From Pseudomonas sp. HAR-UPW-AIA-41 (lineage in GTDB: Bacteria; Pseudomonadota; Gammaproteobacteria; Pseudomonadales; Pseudomonadaceae): a stretch of DNA of 64,000 bases. Under the pieces are notes generated by a model that searched no databases, had not been told where the DNA came from, and saw only the letters and a program-made list of their open reading frames with translations. This document shows positions 7,557 through 46,063 of the stretch, in pieces. A program made the translations under genes and the position numbers. How positions within the stretch are numbered: position 1 is the first letter of the stretch; the number at the start of each line of letters is the position of its first letter. The stretch lies in NCBI RefSeq assembly GCF_002304225.1, contig NZ_NSLB01000002.1:62001-126000 (forward strand). Reading direction: 5' to 3'.

Positions 7557-7558
<2 letters not shown>
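7525..7558. terminator. Bidirectional terminator between the HU-like gene and ligA
   Basis: A perfect 14-bp stem (ACGACAAGGCCGCC / GGCGGCCTTGTCGT) with a TGAT loop lies between convergent genes. Short T runs on the plus side and A residues on the other flank fit a terminator working both ways. It touches the ligA stop codon. Confidence 0.85.
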
Positions 7559-9989
<2,431 letters not shown>

Positions 9990-27906: not shown

Positions 27907-28815
27907 TCAAACCTTTGTCTTGCGTCTGTCGCTGGCAGCAATCAGCTCTGCCAACGCCGAAACATCAAGCAACGCACACATATGCTCGATAACTGTTCCA
28001 GCTAGCCAAGGCCGCTGAGTACGCTGACTACGCCACTTGACCTCACTCGGATCAAGGCGAATCGAGCGACTGACCTGATGCACAGCCAGCCCCCACTCAC
28101 AACCTTGAATGGAGATAACGTACTGCAGCCCCTCACGGCACTCATCACGATAGCGCTCTGGCATTACCCAGCGCGCCGTATCAATGACTTTGAGGTTGCC
28201 TGCGGGCACCGGCAGGATGCCGAGAAACCAATCAGGCTGGCCGAACAAGGGCGTTAACTCCTGTCCTTCCAGAGGGCAAATACTACCGAGGCAAATAAGA
28301 GGCACTGCCAGCGTCAAACCAGCCACATCGAACAACAAGCACTCAAAGGGCTCATCTGCCCAACTCGGCCGCCCAACCCAGGGAGCACTGGCTGTTGGCG
28401 CTTTTTCCTCGACAACCACTGCAACTACTGGCGCAGGCGGCTCGATGGAGGGTTCGCTCACCGCAGGTGTTGTTTCTGTTACAACAACTGGCTCAACCAC
28501 CGGCAAAAAACTGGGCAACAACGAAGGCAAGCCAAGCTCGCTTTTAACAGGCGGCAAACGCTCCGCCAAAGTCACTACCCGTGCAGAGGGCTGAGGCTGT
28601 CGGCGGGCATCACGCACCTCCTCCTCCAGTACCGCCGCCGCAAAATCATCCATATCAGTTTGAATGGCTACGCGGTGGGGAGAACCTGGCATCGCTGGCT
28701 CAAACTCAACCCCCCGGGCTGCTTCCAGCTCGCTCGCAGCATCCTGCAACAACGCATCCAGATAACTCTGAAGAGCCAGCTGAGAACGGGTATTGAGGCG
28801 CTGCGGACGATTCAT
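27907..28815 (-). CDS. parP: ParP-like protein with C-terminal CheW domain
   Basis: A 302-residue protein. Its N-terminal half is a low-complexity, Pro/Val/Glu-rich region (about 60-150) after a short helical start. The C-terminal half (about 155-300) is a CheW-like domain: FECLLFDVAGLTLAVPLICLGSICPL, then FLGILPVPAGNLKVIDTARWVM. This matches Vibrio ParP, which binds CheA and ParC and keeps arrays at the cell pole. Its position between parC and cheW supports the call. The symbol is by homology of order and architecture; a general CheW-like coupling protein is the alternative. Confidence 0.82.
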   Translation of the reverse strand: MNRPQRLNTRSQLALQSYLDALLQDAASELEAARGVEFEPAMPGSPHRVAIQTDMDDFAAAVLEEEVRDARRQPQPSARVVTLAERLPPVKSELGLPSLLPSFLPVVEPVVVTETTPAVSEPSIEPPAPVVAVVVEEKAPTASAPWVGRPSWADEPFECLLFDVAGLTLAVPLICLGSICPLEGQELTPLFGQPDWFLGILPVPAGNLKVIDTARWVMPERYRDECREGLQYVISIQGCEWGLAVHQVSRSIRLDPSEVKWRSQRTQRPWLAGTVIEHMCALLDVSALAELIAASDRRKTKV

Positions 28816-28900: not shown

Positions 28901-29689
28901 TCACGCCACCTGGGTAGCCGGTTGATGGCTTAGCAGATGCTTGAGCAAGGCCCGATAGGCAATCACACCGCGACTATTGGGATCAAACTGAGAGGGCGTC
29001 AAACCCGCCCGACTGGCATCACGCAGCCGCGTGTCCACTGGCACATAGGCTTGCCACAGCTGCTCAGGATAGGTGTTACGCAACAGACGCAGTGTTGTCA
29101 TCGACGCCTGTGTTCGACGGTCAAACAAAGTAGGCACTATGGTGTAAGGCAAAGCCTGTTTTCTCGAGCGATTGATCATAGTCAGCGTATTGGTCATACG
29201 CTCCAAGCCTTTTACCGCCAGAAATTCAGTCTGAACAGGAATCACCAACTGCTGACTGGCAGCGAGCGCATTGACCATCAGAACACCGAGCAATGGCGGG
29301 CTGTCGATGATGGCATGATCAAACTGCCCCCAGAGCTGCGCCAGGCTTTTGGCAATAACCAGCCCCAGGCCGTTCTGCCCTGGGGACTGTCGTTCTAGAG
29401 TAGCCAACGCCGTGCTGGACGGCAGCAACGCTATACGCTCATTGCTAGTGGGTAACAGTAGGCGCTGCGGCAGGCCATTTGGAACATTGCCCTGTTGCAG
29501 AAAAAGATCGTAGTTACTGTGTTCAAGTCCGTCAGGATCATGGCCAAAGTAGCTGGTCATCGAACCATGGGGGTCAAGATCGACAACCACCACGCGCTTG
29601 CCGGCGTCGGCCAAGAGGCCCGCCAAGGCAATCGACGTGGTGGTTTTGCCGACACCACCTTTCTGATTCGCAACAGCCCACACTCTCAT
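28901..29689 (-). CDS. parC: ParA-family ATPase, ParC-like
   Basis: A 262-residue MinD/ParA-type ATPase with the deviant Walker A K10-GGVGKT-16 and a switch region (VVVDLDPHGS, DSPPLLGVLM). It lies between motD and the ParP-like gene in the chemotaxis cluster. This is the place of Vibrio ParC, which brings chemotaxis arrays to the old pole. It is not the chromosomal ParA, which would be beside parB. The start MRVWAVANQ is the ATG at 29689, right before the nucleotide-binding loop; the upstream frame has no support. Confidence 0.86.
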   Translation of the reverse strand: MRVWAVANQKGGVGKTTTSIALAGLLADAGKRVVVVDLDPHGSMTSYFGHDPDGLEHSNYDLFLQQGNVPNGLPQRLLLPTSNERIALLPSSTALATLERQSPGQNGLGLVIAKSLAQLWGQFDHAIIDSPPLLGVLMVNALAASQQLVIPVQTEFLAVKGLERMTNTLTMINRSRKQALPYTIVPTLFDRRTQASMTTLRLLRNTYPEQLWQAYVPVDTRLRDASRAGLTPSQFDPNSRGVIAYRALLKHLLSHQPATQVA

Positions 29690-29738
29690 GATAATGATCC
29701 TCTCGGCAGCGACCTGGCTTACCAAGATACTCGGCCAG

Positions 29739-30611
29739 TCAATTGGCCGGAGGCAAAGAATTGACGGCGCCCGCAGGCTGCGCCGGTAACTGAGGTGTTT
29801 CTGCAGGTTGCGTGCCAGCACGCTGCAGAGCAGCATCCGGCTTGGCATGGGCACTACCCACACCGCTCACGCTGCGGCGTATCTCCAGATTACGCGAAAC
29901 CACAAGCACCACACGCCGATTACGTCCACGCCCCTCAGCAGTGTCATTTTCGGCAATTGGCTGAAACTCTCCATACCCAACTGCCGCCATGCGCCCTGGT
30001 CTTACACCATCAAGCGCCAACATTCTGACAATGCTCGCAGCCCTCGCTGTAGACAACTCCCAGTTGCTTGGATAGGGGCCGGCACTGATCGGAACGTTAT
30101 CGGTAAACCCTTCAACGTGAATAGGGTTCTCGTAAGGTGCGAGGATCGCTGCGATCTTCTCAATGATGGCAAAAGCCCCCTCACTAGGCACTGCATCGCC
30201 ACTCGAAAACAACAGACTGGAGTTGAGCTCGATTTCAACCCAAAGCTCATTGCCCCTTACAGTCAACTGGTTGGACTTGATCAGATCACCAAAAGATTGC
30301 TGCACACTCAGGGCAATCTGGTTCAACGAGTCCGTGGTCCCTGTACTCTCCTCACCTTCTGGCGCTGCATCCAGATCTGGCGAAATAGTACGAGGCTGCT
30401 CTTCGCCAATCGCAATGGGTTTGGTCGAACGCTCAGGTTGATTGAAAACGCCAACAAGGGTATCGGACAGTACCTTGTACTTGCCCTCATTGACCGAGGA
30501 AATCGAATACATCACAACGAAGAAAGCAAATAGCAGAGTAATGAAGTCGGCATATGAAACCAGCCAACGCTCATGGTTCTCATGCTCTTCATGACGCCGA
30601 CGCCGACTCAC
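29739..30611 (-). CDS. motD: Flagellar stator protein MotD (MotB-like)
   Basis: A 290-residue stator subunit. A short basic N-terminus and one transmembrane helix (about 18-38, VSYADFITLLFAFFVVMYSI) carry the conserved proton-binding Asp22 (SYADF). A periplasmic linker precedes the OmpA-like peptidoglycan-binding domain (about 145-250; VEGFTDNVPIS and NWELSTARA). The tail is Pro/Ala-rich. The start is GTG, preceded by GGAGTAGG. It lies 4 bases after motC. With MotC it forms one of the two stator sets known in Pseudomonas; MotAB is not in this window. Confidence 0.94.
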   Translation of the reverse strand: MSRRRRHEEHENHERWLVSYADFITLLFAFFVVMYSISSVNEGKYKVLSDTLVGVFNQPERSTKPIAIGEEQPRTISPDLDAAPEGEESTGTTDSLNQIALSVQQSFGDLIKSNQLTVRGNELWVEIELNSSLLFSSGDAVPSEGAFAIIEKIAAILAPYENPIHVEGFTDNVPISAGPYPSNWELSTARAASIVRMLALDGVRPGRMAAVGYGEFQPIAENDTAEGRGRNRRVVLVVSRNLEIRRSVSGVGSAHAKPDAALQRAGTQPAETPQLPAQPAGAVNSLPPAN

Positions 30612-32483: not shown

Positions 32484-34730
32484 TCAACCACGCCGAGCGT
32501 AGCGTTTAAGCATGCTGGGAACATCGAGAATCAAAGCAATGCGACCGTCGCCGGTGATGGTCGCACCCGCCATACCAGGCGTACCTTGCAGCTTTTTGCC
32601 AAGCGGCTTGATAACAACCTCTTCCTGGCCAACCAACTGATCAACCACGAAACCGATTCGCTGCGTGCCGACAGAAAGAATCACAACATGCCCTTCGCCA
32701 CGCTCATCATAGGCGGCATTGGGCACCAGCCAGCGCTTGAGATAAAACAGTGGCAGTGCCTTGTCGCGCACAATCACCACTTCCTGCCCATCAACCACGT
32801 TGGTTCTGGACAGATCGAGATGGAAGATCTCGTTGACGTTGACCAGCGGGAAGGCAAACGCCTGATTGGCCAGCATGACCATCAGGGTCGGCATGATCGC
32901 CAGGGTCAGCGGCACCTTGATGATGATCTTCGAACCCTGCCCTTTGACTGAATAGACGTTAACCGTACCGTTCAGCTGGGAAATTTTGGTCTTGACCACA
33001 TCCATGCCCACCCCACGACCGGACACATCGGAAATCTCCGTCTTGGTCGAGAAGCCTGGGGCAAAAATCAGGTTGTAGCATTCCAGTTCGTTGAGGCGAT
33101 CCGCCGCATCCTTGTCCAGCAGGCCCTTTTCCACAGCCTTGGCACGCAGCACATCAGCATCCATACCCTTGCCATCATCGGAGATCGACAGCAGGATGTG
33201 ATCCCCCTCCTGCTCGGCGGACAGCACGACCTTACCGGCACGTGGTTTACCGGCCGCCTCACGCTCTTCCGGAGTTTCCACGCCGTGGTCAACGGCATTG
33301 CGCACCAAGTGCACCAGCGGGTCAGCCAGAGCCTCTACAAGGTTTTTGTCGAGATCGGTTTCTTCGCCGACCAGCTCCAAATTGATTTCTTTCTTAAGGT
33401 TACGCGCCAGGTCACGAACCAATCGGGGGAATCGACCAAAGACCTTCTTGATCGGCTGCATCCGCGTTTTCATCACCGCAGTCTGCAGATCAGCCGTGAC
33501 TACATCGAGGTTGGACACGGCTTTGGACATCGCCTCATCGCCGCTATTCAGGCCCAGACGAACCAGACGGTTTCGCACCAGCACCAACTCGCCGACCATG
33601 TTCATGATCTCGTCGAGACGCGCAGTGTCCACCCGAACCGTGGTTTCCGCCTCACTGGCAGCTCCGGCCTTGTCACCAGCGGCTGCAGGTGCTGCCGCAG
33701 CTCTGGCCGGTACAGAAGCTGATGCTGGCGCGGGTGAAGGTGCAGCAGTAGCTACTGGTGCCTTAGGCTCTACCCGTTCCGGAACCGGCTCACTGACGGC
33801 GGCCTTGCTAGTAACGGGAGGCACAGCGGCAGCAGGCTCTTCTGGGGGAACAAACTTACCCTTGCCATGCAACTGATCGAGAAGCGCCTCAAACTCATCG
33901 TCAGTAATATGTTCATCAGAGGCTGCTGCAGGGGCCACGCTGATACTCTGCTCAGCGGCCGGAGGAACAAACTTGCCCTTGCCATGCAACTGATCAAGTA
34001 ACGCCTCAAATTCCGAGTCGCTTATTTCGTCGCCGCCTCCAACAGCCACAGGTGCCGGCTCAGCAGCTACAGGCGCAGCCGCGAACTTGCCTGGACCATG
34101 CAGATCATCGAGCAACTTTTCAAACTCGTCGTCGCTGATCTCATCACTAGCAACGCTGCTCGCAGGGCCTTCGACTGGACTAGTTTCAGCGGGGCCCAAA
34201 GCATCGAGAAGCTGCTCGAACTCACTGTCGGTGATGTCACCGGAAGCGACAGCTGCAGTCTCGACGACAACTGAAACAGGCTCTTCTACTACCGGAGCGG
34301 GTGCCGGAGCAGCAGGAGGTGGTGCACTGGGCGCCTCTCCCTGAGGTTCAGCCAACCGCGCCAGCGCCTGCAACAAGTCTGGTGAGGCTGGAATTGGCTC
34401 GGTACGCTCACGCACCTGGCTGAACATTTCGTTAACCGTATCCAGTGCCTGAAGCACTACGTCCATCAGCTCCGCATCGACCCGGCGAGCGCCCTTGCGC
34501 AAGATATCGAACACATTCTCGGCAATGTGGCAGCACTCAACCAGAGCATTGAGTTGGAGGAAGCCCGCCCCACCTTTAACGGTGTGAAAGCCCCGGAAGA
34601 TGGCGTTGAGCAGATCCATATCATCAGGCCGGCTTTCCAGCTCAACCAATTGTTCGGATAACAGCTCAAGAATCTCGCCGGCCTCTACCAGGAAGTCCTG
34701 GAGAATTTCCTCATCGGCGTCGAAGCTCAT
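32484..34730 (-). CDS. cheA: Chemotaxis histidine kinase CheA
   Basis: A 748-residue sensor kinase. The N-terminal Hpt domain has the phosphorylated His49 in RGFHTVKGG. There is then a long Ala/Pro-rich region (about 130-360) with four copies of a short acidic motif, listed separately. The dimerisation domain (about 362-425), the HATPase domain (DHGVETPEERE, DDGKGMD, GRGVGMDVVKTKI) and the CheW-like P5 domain follow. It phosphorylates CheY and CheB in response to receptors. No clear separate P2 domain is seen. AAGGAG precedes the ATG. The gene is followed by cheB and preceded by cheZ. Confidence 0.95.
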   Translation of the reverse strand: MSFDADEEILQDFLVEAGEILELLSEQLVELESRPDDMDLLNAIFRGFHTVKGGAGFLQLNALVECCHIAENVFDILRKGARRVDAELMDVVLQALDTVNEMFSQVRERTEPIPASPDLLQALARLAEPQGEAPSAPPPAAPAPAPVVEEPVSVVVETAAVASGDITDSEFEQLLDALGPAETSPVEGPASSVASDEISDDEFEKLLDDLHGPGKFAAAPVAAEPAPVAVGGGDEISDSEFEALLDQLHGKGKFVPPAAEQSISVAPAAASDEHITDDEFEALLDQLHGKGKFVPPEEPAAAVPPVTSKAAVSEPVPERVEPKAPVATAAPSPAPASASVPARAAAAPAAAGDKAGAASEAETTVRVDTARLDEIMNMVGELVLVRNRLVRLGLNSGDEAMSKAVSNLDVVTADLQTAVMKTRMQPIKKVFGRFPRLVRDLARNLKKEINLELVGEETDLDKNLVEALADPLVHLVRNAVDHGVETPEEREAAGKPRAGKVVLSAEQEGDHILLSISDDGKGMDADVLRAKAVEKGLLDKDAADRLNELECYNLIFAPGFSTKTEISDVSGRGVGMDVVKTKISQLNGTVNVYSVKGQGSKIIIKVPLTLAIMPTLMVMLANQAFAFPLVNVNEIFHLDLSRTNVVDGQEVVIVRDKALPLFYLKRWLVPNAAYDERGEGHVVILSVGTQRIGFVVDQLVGQEEVVIKPLGKKLQGTPGMAGATITGDGRIALILDVPSMLKRYARRG
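33852..34238 (-). repeat. Four degenerate repeats in the CheA linker
   Basis: CheA residues 165-180, 196-216, 234-254 and 273-293 repeat the pattern D-E-I-[ST]-D-x-E-F-E-x-L-L-D-x-L, mostly followed by HGxGKF. Pro/Ala-rich spacers of about 15-20 residues separate them. Copies 3 and 4 are also closely alike at the DNA level, which suggests duplication. The motif resembles the N-terminal SQDEIDALL peptide of FliM in this window, a known CheY-binding element. Confidence 0.85.
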
Positions 34731-34741
34731 GTAGGTGCTCC

Positions 34742-35530
34742 TTAGAAGCCCAGACTGGAAAGCAGATCATCGACGTCGACCTGTCCGGATACGACATCAT
34801 CACGCTTATCGGCATGCATCTGCGGACCTTCACCCTGGGATGAAACTTTTTGTTGTTTGGCTTCTTCCTGGATCGCGGCTTGGTCATGCTCGATACCCGC
34901 GAAGCGATCGACATGACTGGCCATCATCACCAGCTTGACCAGATTACTTTCCACTTCAGTCACCAGCGCAGTGACACGTTTGATCACCTGGCCAGTGAGA
35001 TCCTGAAAGTCCTGAGCCAAGAGGATGTCATTCAGATAGCTGGATAGCTGAGTACCATCCTGGTCGACACGACCAAGAAAGTTGTCGACCTTTTTGGCAA
35101 GATCACGGAAGCCATCGGCACTGATTTCACGACGCATAAAGCGCCCCCACTCTTCCCGCAACTGCTGGGACTCATCAGAGAGGCCATTGACCAGGGGCGC
35201 GCTCAGCTCGACCAAATCCATGGTGCGATTGGCCGCTTTTTCGGTCATCTCAACCACGTAGTTAAGGCGGTGAGTAGCATCGTTGATCTGTGACATTTCC
35301 TGGGCATGCTTGCCGTGGATGTCGATCTGAAAGTTGACGATTGCGTTGTGTAACTCACGGGTCAGCTTGCCCACTTCCTGGTACAAGCCACGATCACGCA
35401 CCTGATTGAGTTCGTAAATAACCTGAATTGCCTCGGCAAAATTGCCGCGTTCCAAGCTGTTCACCAACTTGTTTGCGTGATCTTTCAGGGTTGTCTCAAG
35501 CTCACCCTGCGAAGATTCGTTGTGCTCCAT
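34742..35530 (-). CDS. cheZ: CheY-P phosphatase CheZ
   Basis: A 262-residue, almost entirely helical cytoplasmic protein that speeds dephosphorylation of CheY-P. The central hairpin has the conserved ILLAQDFQDLTGQVIKRV segment, which holds the catalytic Asp/Gln. A linker leads to the C-terminal CheY-binding helix VDVDDLLSSLGF (251-262). It lies between cheY and cheA with short gaps. The ATG start gives the family length. Confidence 0.95.
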   Translation of the reverse strand: MEHNESSQGELETTLKDHANKLVNSLERGNFAEAIQVIYELNQVRDRGLYQEVGKLTRELHNAIVNFQIDIHGKHAQEMSQINDATHRLNYVVEMTEKAANRTMDLVELSAPLVNGLSDESQQLREEWGRFMRREISADGFRDLAKKVDNFLGRVDQDGTQLSSYLNDILLAQDFQDLTGQVIKRVTALVTEVESNLVKLVMMASHVDRFAGIEHDQAAIQEEAKQQKVSSQGEGPQMHADKRDDVVSGQVDVDDLLSSLGF

Positions 35531-35547: not shown

Positions 35548-35922
35548 TCAGCCATTGACCCGCTCAAAAATCTTGTCGATCTTTTCCTTGAGCACCTGGG
35601 CCGTAAAGGGTTTGACCACGTAGCCATTCACCCCGGCTTGGGCCGCCTCGATAATTTGGTCGCGCTTCGCCTCGGCAGTCACCATCAGCACCGGCAAACC
35701 CTTCAGGCGCTCATCCGCGCGCACCGCACGCAGCAGATCAATGCCGGTCATCCCGGGCATGTTCCAGTCGGTGACCAGGAAGTCGAAACTGCCGCTCTGC
35801 AGCATCGGCAACGCTGTGGTGCCGTCATCAGCCTCCGACGTGTTGGTAAAACCCAGATCACGCAACAGGTTCTTGATGATCCGTCTCATCGTCGAAAAAT
35901 CGTCCACGATGAGGATTTTCAT
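35548..35922 (-). CDS. cheY: Chemotaxis response regulator CheY
   Basis: A 124-residue single-domain receiver. Its acidic pocket is D7/D8, the phospho-acceptor is D52 (LVTDWNMPG), the switch Thr is T82 and the conserved Lys is K104 (VVKPF). Phosphorylated by CheA, it binds the switch proteins FliM/FliN and changes motor rotation. The start MKILIVDDF at 35922 gives the exact family length; the in-frame ATG at 35982 adds an unrelated extension. It is the first che gene after fliA. Confidence 0.96.
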
Positions 35923-36000
35923 ATTCTTGTCCAAGTCGACCTCCGTACAGTCTCTAACGCTTCCCTGAGGAAACGCCGTCAATTCTTGATCGGCCTTATC

Positions 36001-45091: not shown

Positions 45092-46063
45092 TTAGCGGCT
45101 GCGCTCAACCGGTTCCAGAATCTGCAGGGCCAGATTGCCCTTGTGTGCGCCCAGCTTGACCTTGAAAGTCGGCACGCCATTGGCGCGCACCACCATCTGT
45201 TCGGGCATTTCCACCGGGATAATGTCACCCGGCTGCATGTGCAGGATGTCGCGCAGCTTGAGCTGGCGGCGTACAACCGTGGTATCCAGTGGCACCTTCA
45301 CATCCAGTACGTCTTCACGCAGGGCCTTGACCCAGCGCTCGTCCTGATCGTCGACGTCCGACTGGAAGCCGGCATCCAGCATTTCGCGGATCGGTTCAAT
45401 CATCGAATACGGCAGGGTCATGTGCAGATCACCGCCACCACCATCGAGCTCGATGTGGAAGGTCGACACCACCACCACTTCACTGGGACTGACGATGTTG
45501 GCCAGAGCCGGGTTGACCTCCGAGTTGATGTACTCGAAGTTGATATCGAGCACCGCGTGCCAGGCTTCCTTCATGTCGATAAAGGCCTGATCCAGCACCA
45601 TACGCACCACACGCAGCTCAGTGGGTGTGAACTCACGCCCTTCGATCTTGGCGTGGCGACCGTCACCACCGAAGAAGTTGTCCACCAGCTTGAACACCAG
45701 CTTGGCATCCAGAATGAACAGCGCCGTGCCGCGCAGCGGCTTCATCTTCACCAGATTGAGACTGGTCGGCACGTACAGCGAGTGCACGTACTCGCCGAAC
45801 TTCATCACCTGAACCCCGCCGACGGCGACATCAGCCGAGCGGCGCAGCAGGTTGAACATACTGATGCGGGTGTAACGGGCAAAACGCTCGTTGATCATCT
45901 CCAGGGTCGGCATGCGGCCACGGACGATTCGATCCTGGCTCGTCAGGTCATAGGACTTGATCGTGCCCGGTTCGGCATCACTTTCCGTTTCGACCAGACC
46001 GTCGTCGACGCCATGCAGTAACGCGTCAATCTCGTCCTGGGAAAGCAGATCCTGCACTGCCAT
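45092..46063 (-). CDS. fliM: Flagellar motor switch protein FliM
   Basis: A 323-residue C-ring protein. Its N-terminal peptide LLSQDEIDALLHG (residues 6-18) is the known CheY-P binding element. The middle CheC-like domain (about 45-235) binds FliG, with GG-type motifs, and the C-terminal SPOA domain binds FliN. It connects CheY signalling to motor reversal. It is preceded by fliL with a 9-base gap. Confidence 0.96.
   Translation of the reverse strand: MAVQDLLSQDEIDALLHGVDDGLVETESDAEPGTIKSYDLTSQDRIVRGRMPTLEMINERFARYTRISMFNLLRRSADVAVGGVQVMKFGEYVHSLYVPTSLNLVKMKPLRGTALFILDAKLVFKLVDNFFGGDGRHAKIEGREFTPTELRVVRMVLDQAFIDMKEAWHAVLDINFEYINSEVNPALANIVSPSEVVVVSTFHIELDGGGGDLHMTLPYSMIEPIREMLDAGFQSDVDDQDERWVKALREDVLDVKVPLDTTVVRRQLKLRDILHMQPGDIIPVEMPEQMVVRANGVPTFKVKLGAHKGNLALQILEPVERSR

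What the first reader, a model, noticed from the sequence alone, without database searches (positions are those of the whole stretch)
33852..34238. Four FliM-N-like motifs in the CheA linker: candidate multivalent CheY docking
The CheA region between Hpt and dimerisation domains repeats [IL]-[ST]-D-x-E-F-E-x-L-L-D-x-L four times. FliM in the same window begins LLSQDEIDALLHG, the established CheY-P-binding peptide, and the two share S/T-x-x-E-[IF]-[DE]-x-L-L. CheA here has no obvious P2 domain, so the repeats may replace it as CheY (or CheB) docking sites and give an avidity effect. The repeats are directly seen; CheY binding is inferred.
Basis: partly seen in the sequence, partly recalled or inferred. 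Interest (0 to 1): 0.72.

Follow-up and report, generated by a model that had tools for sequence, protein, structure and literature searches.

The report
Repeated docking peptides in CheA linker
The chemotaxis kinase CheA of this bacterium carries four copies of a short, strongly conserved helical peptide where other bacteria have a folded CheY-docking domain; the peptide resembles two known CheY-binding peptides and is widespread in related bacteria, but what it binds has still to be measured.

Summary
CheA (window 32484-34730, minus strand, 748 aa) has four copies of I-[ST]-D-x-E-F-E-x-L-L-D-x-L between Hpt and dimerisation domain, three with an HGxGK tail. They are not chance. In the class survey 81 of 82 full-length CheAs read carry 1-8 copies (the 82nd has two degenerate look-alikes). 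None of 84 CheA N-termini matched a P2/CheY-binding Pfam model at E <= 0.003. A profile made from other genomes ranks FliM residues 7-19 second of 18,220 windows in 57 other ORFs here, and in 39 of 77 CheZ proteins of the class the best match is the C-terminus, also a CheY-binding peptide. So CheY docking is a reasonable reading. Yet eight full-length CheAs come from genomes where neither ParC nor ParP was found, and seven keep 1-4 copies, so ParP is unlikely to be the only partner; copy number is lower there. A structure-prediction comparison did not discriminate and a covariation test was negative. I favour CheY docking as the core role, with ParP sharing the array where present; unproven.

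The parts
32484..34730 (-). cheA, 748 aa: Hpt 8-99, dimerisation 363-422, HATPase 470-609, CheW-like 616-743
   Evidence: ORF; Pfam
34182..34244 (-). repeat 1, SGDITDSEFEQLLDALGPAET (no HGxG tail)
34086..34148 (-). repeat 2, SDEISDDEFEKLLDDLHGPGK
33972..34034 (-). repeat 3, GDEISDSEFEALLDQLHGKGK
33855..33917 (-). repeat 4, DEHITDDEFEALLDQLHGKGK
35548..35982 (-). cheY, proposed binding partner (ORF as listed; the true start is probably internal)
   Evidence: Pfam Response_reg; sequence
34742..35530 (-). cheZ; its C-terminus VDVDDLLSSLGF is the analogous peptide
   Evidence: Pfam CheZ; sequence
45092..46063 (-). fliM; N-terminus LLSQDEIDALLHG
   Evidence: Pfam; sequence
27907..28815 (-). parP orthologue (C-terminal CheW-like part with WRSQRTQRPWLAG), rival partner; identity inferred from place and similarity
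   Evidence: sequence; profile; alignment; gene order in relatives
28901..29863 (-). parC-type ParA ATPase (ORF as listed; likely start internal, at MRVWAV)
   Evidence: sequence

Best explanation
The repeats are a string of acidic amphipathic-helix docking peptides on a flexible Pro/Ala linker that stands in for P2 in F6-type gammaproteobacterial CheA. Each copy (I-[TS]-[DE]-x-E-F-E-x-L-L-D-x-L-H-G) most likely binds CheY on the surface used by FliM-N and CheZ-C, keeping CheY near the phosphorylated Hpt domain; several copies raise local CheY concentration. In species with ParC/ParP the same linker also serves as the LID to which ParP binds. Shown here: the repeats, their conservation, no match to a P2 model, resemblance to FliM-N and CheZ-C, and persistence in most genomes where no ParP/ParC was found. 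Inferred: CheY binding, avidity, sharing with ParP.
For: 0 of 84 CheA N-termini match either P2 Pfam model at E <= 0.003 (all 11 families listed); at E <= 0.1 neither is among the 25 of 55 families shown. 81 of 82 full-length CheAs of the class survey hold at least one repeat; 30 of 30 loci of the genus that were read hold four; 80 of 80 named loci hold 2-4. The repeat profile (built from loci L073-L163, without the window) ranks FliM residues 7-19 second of 18,220 windows of 57 other window ORFs; the best-scoring window of CheZ is within 3 residues of its end in 39 of 77 CheZ proteins, against 13 of 94 for CheY and 0-4 for each other gene. Seven of eight full-length CheAs from genomes without detected ParP and ParC keep 1-4 copies. 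L157 and L158 keep one copy although no cheZ lies between cheY and cheA there. In 200 Pseudomonadota genomes the motif at E < 0.001 is found in 24, all of the window's class; all 24 loci fetched for these are CheA. P. putida CheA pulled down CheY and CheZ strongly (PMC11978298, passages). CheZ and FliM share one CheY face (PMC3774744, passage).
Against: No binding was tested. In this window the CheZ C-terminus itself is not the best CheZ match. CheZ C-terminus and CheA repeat scores do not covary (73 loci, rho 0.09, partial 0.00). AlphaFold: helix block pLDDT 88 with CheY in the chain and 81 without, too close to tell, and contacts could not be read. CheA without P2 can still phosphorylate CheY (PMC10782961, section 12). 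Copy number is lower where ParP is missing, which points to ParP as well.
Confidence: 0.5

Rival explanations
1. The repeats are simply the LID of CheA: they bind the AIF domain of ParP, tying CheA and the array to the ParC-marked pole; resemblance to FliM-N is coincidental.
For: Vibrio ParP binds CheA through a LID said to occur only with ParC/ParP (PMC5706961 passages), placed between P2 and P3 (PMC7534058 passage). In the Vibrio, Aliivibrio and Photobacterium linkers printed, the repeats are by eye the main conserved block. ParC and ParP genes are recognised at 76 of 80 named loci; of the other four (L204, L238, L240, L246) all end early at a contig end. 34 of 53 ParP-labelled ORFs of the class loci carry a W-R-x(5)-R-x-W-L-[AS]-G segment. 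Copy number averages 2.7 in 67 genomes with ParP and is 0-4 in 12 without (p 0.001, not corrected for kinship).
Against: Eight full-length CheAs come from genomes where neither ParP nor a ParC orthologue was found; seven keep 1-4 repeats, one only degenerate copies. Four more genomes have ParC without a recognised ParP and keep 1-2.
Confidence: 0.28
2. The repeats bind another partner: CheB or CheV receiver domains, CheZ, CheW/P5, or CheA itself, for example to hold the Hpt domain or to build array contacts.
For: CheZ co-purifies with P. putida CheA (PMC11978298, passage). P2 of other CheAs docks CheB too (same paper).
Against: No specific pointer in the sequences; L157/L158, with no cheZ next to cheA, keep the motif.
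Confidence: 0.15
3. A SHOCT-type short C-terminal domain, as Pfam suggests, or a plain spacer helix.
For: SHOCT matches this CheA at E 3e-8 (best stretch 162-177) and 56 of 84 relatives at E <= 0.003, 73 at E <= 0.1.
Against: The model is 28 positions long and only positions 11-26 match; the copies are internal and repeated, and a spacer would not keep E-F-x-x-L-L across the class.
Confidence: 0.07

Closest known systems
CheA LID (ParP-binding region of Vibrio CheA)
   Same: Same linker of orthologous CheAs, parC and parP in the same gene cluster
   Different: LID borders could not be read (the 2014 paper is not held); the repeats also occur where ParC/ParP were not found, against the stated restriction
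FliM N-terminal CheY-binding peptide
   Same: Core [ST]-x-x-E-[IF]-[DE]-x-L-L
   Different: Internal, repeated, F instead of I, extended by D-x-L-H-G-x-G-K; binding untested
CheZ C-terminal CheY-binding peptide
   Same: Acidic stretch D-[DEQ]-[VF]-[DE]-x-L-L-x-x-L
   Different: CheZ mostly ends in L-G-F; V instead of F
CheA P2 / CheY-binding domain
   Same: Same place between P1 and P3; proposed same job
   Different: Peptides, not a recognised folded domain; no Pfam match in 84 relatives

Membership tests
P2/CheY-binding domain (PF07194, PF09078) | sequence match to the domain models between P1 and P3 | tested here: not met
   none in the window CheA at E <= 1; 0 of 84 relatives at E <= 0.003; profile-profile search, which finds more P2 domains according to PMC10782961, not run
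P2/CheY-binding domain (PF07194, PF09078) | a folded domain between P1 and P3 | tested here: inconclusive
   only a relative (L158) was modelled: after the Hpt helices one 7-residue and one 12-residue helix in a low-confidence linker; the window CheA was not modelled
FliM-N/CheZ-C type CheY-binding peptide | sequence core | tested here: met
   FliM second of 18,220 windows; CheZ end best in 39 of 77, but not in the window's own CheZ
FliM-N/CheZ-C type CheY-binding peptide | binds the alpha4-beta5-alpha5 face of CheY | not testable with these tools
   coordinates of the predicted chain are not given; confidence change 81 to 88 is not decisive
CheA LID | lies in the linker before P3 | tested here: met
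CheA LID | present only with ParC/ParP | tested here: not met
   seven full-length CheAs with 1-4 repeats from genomes without detected ParC/ParP; drafts listed as 91-100% complete, so absence is not certain
CheA LID | binds ParP AIF | not testable with these tools
   literature on Vibrio only
SHOCT | short domain at the C-terminus | tested here: not met
   match is internal, partial (16 of 28 positions) and in a repeated motif

The most novel reading that the evidence does not exclude
Across F6-type gammaproteobacterial CheA, P2 has been replaced by 1-8 copies of one FliM/CheZ-like helix that both CheY and ParP recognise, so that loading of CheY and tethering of the array to the pole compete for, or share, the same peptides, and copy number sets the balance.
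Probability: 0.22. Interest if true: 0.75.

Novelty: new variant of a known kind. Interest (0 to 1): 0.5.

Why it matters
More than half of CheA proteins in a broad survey lack P2 (PMC10782961, abstract and section 12), and how they bring CheY to the kinase is not settled in what I read. A defined, repeated peptide makes that testable in Pseudomonas with a few point mutations, and it would connect CheY docking with ParP-dependent polar placement of the array.

Tried and rejected
Rejected: SHOCT family (partial, internal match). Motif in other proteins: the 200-genome scan gave only weak matches (E 0.005 to 0.1) outside CheA; two of them that I read (L188, L189) look like DnaG primase (named from memory). 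PDB sequence search with residues 155-300: no match at E <= 10. Covariation of CheZ C-terminus with CheA repeats: none. AlphaFold with and without CheY in the chain: not discriminating. Fold searches of that model: the 50 rows shown are CheY structures and, in one of the two searches, the CheA P1 domain. Spread of copies within one protein in the genus: copies at the same position in different species are more alike (0.85) than copies within one protein (0.79), 29 loci, so the positions are old. Literature: no paper found for the peptide string EFEALLD or for CheA, CheY and chemotaxis with 'linear motif'; 'inheritance domain' with CheA gave one review. Only the held open library was searched, and none of these searches shows that the motif is unpublished.

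Rows dropped before counts: of 91 class loci, nine were left out as fragments, split genes or a different CheA type (L100, L105, L132, L133, L135, L145, L151, L160, L162), giving 82; for the ParP comparison three more with unclear ParP (L121, L134, L144), giving 79. Some genomes counted as having ParP rest on weak hits (E 1e-7 to 1e-12). The 91 loci are the top CheA rows after the window's own, down to about 380 bits, a cut I chose; 'F6' is my label from gene order and the literature. Of 59 genus genomes, all with a match, CheA was read in 30. The 57 window ORFs were picked by me. The P2 scan covered 84 of 91 loci (seven skipped because an end was missing).

Full report
What is there. The minus-strand ORF 32484-34730 is CheA, 748 aa. 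Pfam finds Hpt, dimerisation, HATPase and CheW-like domains and no P2 or CheY-binding domain at E <= 1. The stretch between Hpt and dimerisation domain is rich in Ala and Pro and holds four copies of I-[ST]-D-x-E-F-E-x-L-L-D-x-L at residues 166, 198, 236 and 275; none appeared in 20,000 shuffles. Copies 2-4 also repeat at DNA level and end in LHGxGK.

How widespread. A search of 59 genomes of the window's genus (taken to be Pseudomonas) matched all 59; the 30 loci read, the window's own included, all have four copies. In 229 genomes of the class, 147 of which had a CheA match at E <= 1e-60, I took the 91 top CheA loci. Of 82 full-length ones, 81 have at least one copy at the score used; the exception, L161, shows two degenerate look-alikes by eye. 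Copies run from 1 to 8, start-to-start spacing 29-73 residues. The consensus is SDEITDDEFEALLDQLHGKGK. In 80 named loci, among them Vibrio, Photobacterium, Shewanella, Alteromonas, Marinobacter and Pseudomonas, 69 have three, 10 four and one two; these 80 are the best of 580 found, themselves a capped list. A profile of the repeat over 200 Pseudomonadota genomes gave matches at E < 0.001 in 24, all of the window's class; all 24 loci fetched for them are CheA.

P2. None of 84 CheA N-termini with linker matched either Pfam model of P2 at E <= 0.003; at E <= 0.1 only 25 of 55 families were shown and neither is among them. The E. coli-type model (PF09078) matched one of 229 class genomes, and E. 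coli as control; PF07194 was not searched genome-wide. The structure model of a relative (L158) shows after the Hpt helices only a 7-residue and a 12-residue helix, the latter being the repeat. A survey finds P2 missing in more than half of CheAs, using more sensitive profile-profile searches that I did not run (PMC10782961, section 12). One P. putida study, by contrast, names a CheY-binding domain in that CheA on the basis of Pfam (PMC11978298, passages), and a review places LID after P2 in Vibrio CheA (PMC7534058, passage); I found no P2 here.

Likeness to CheY-binding peptides. A profile made from the class loci, without the window, was slid over 18,220 positions of 57 other ORFs of the window. 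Its second-best hit is FliM LSQDEIDALLHGV; the best is [13 protein letters not shown] in ORF 7557-9950. In 77 CheZ proteins of the class the best window lies within three residues of the C-terminus in 39. In this window's own CheZ the end is not the best place. That FliM and CheZ use one face of CheY is stated in PMC3774744 (passage).

The rival. parC and parP orthologues lie at 28901-29863 and 27907-28815. In Vibrio, ParP binds CheA through a region called LID, said to exist only with ParC/ParP (PMC5706961, passages) and to lie between P2 and P3 (PMC7534058, passage). The original paper is not held, so I could not compare borders. In the Vibrio linkers printed the repeats are by eye the main conserved block, so LID and repeats very probably overlap (inference).

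Which partner. ParP was found in 71 of 229 class genomes with the single-sequence query at E <= 1e-6, and a profile found it in four more of the 24 other genomes tried (G177, G196, G206, G217). For eight full-length CheAs (genomes G059, G250, G068, G080, G228, G083, G084, G212) no ParP or ParC orthologue was seen: only CheW-like matches up to 40 bits and distant ParA matches up to 148 bits. Seven of these CheAs keep 1-4 repeats; L161 (G083) has only degenerate ones. Four more genomes have ParC but no recognised ParP and keep 1-2. With ParP the mean is 2.7 (67 genomes); the difference between these 67 and the 12 has p 0.001 without correction for kinship. In L157 and L158 (two genomes of one genus, both without ParP) cheA follows cheY directly with no room for cheZ, and one copy is kept; whether cheZ lies elsewhere was not searched. 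So ParP is unlikely to be the only reason for the motif, yet more copies go with ParP. CheY is the simplest constant partner (inference), and P. putida CheA pulls down CheY and CheZ (PMC11978298, passages).

Tests that did not decide. I folded L158 CheY and CheA N-terminus in one chain, and CheA alone. The repeat helix has block pLDDT 88 (residues 381-390) with CheY, and 71 and 81 (residues 241-250, 251-260) without; contacts are not reported. CheZ C-terminus score and CheA repeat score do not covary, which gives no support to a shared partner.

Verdict. Observation confirmed. CheY docking is the better single explanation (0.5), but ParP/LID is a strong rival (0.28) and both may be true.

Noticed in passing
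27907-28815 and 28901-29863: This genome has parP and parC orthologues in its che operon, while PMC12410967 (passage) states that P. aeruginosa has no related genes; PMC12918733 (passage) says Shewanella and Pseudomonas have potential orthologues.
   Followed up: partly
L118 (G091): CheA of 1073 aa with eight repeats and a long AAPAKP tract in a 564-residue linker.
   Followed up: no
L157, L158, L085: cheA follows cheY with no cheZ between them, although these CheAs keep repeats.
   Followed up: partly
L101 (G250): Three copies of a variant, LPEGVDPDG-[ED]-ITDDEFEALLNQRD, that keeps the FliM-like core and lacks LHGxG; no ParC/ParP orthologue found.
   Followed up: partly
L153, L155, L156, L159 (G114, G251, G070, G223): Genomes with ParC but no recognisable ParP.
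   Followed up: partly
L188, L189: Proteins that look like DnaG primase carry a look-alike of the repeat (EITDDDFEGLL, DISDDEFEKLQ) near the C-terminus.
   Followed up: no
Vibrio, Aliivibrio and Photobacterium CheA (L210, L262, L268, L218, L217): The third repeat is followed by a further conserved segment, G-x-G-x-G-P-x-x-E-E-L-[ED], which may be part of LID.
   Followed up: no
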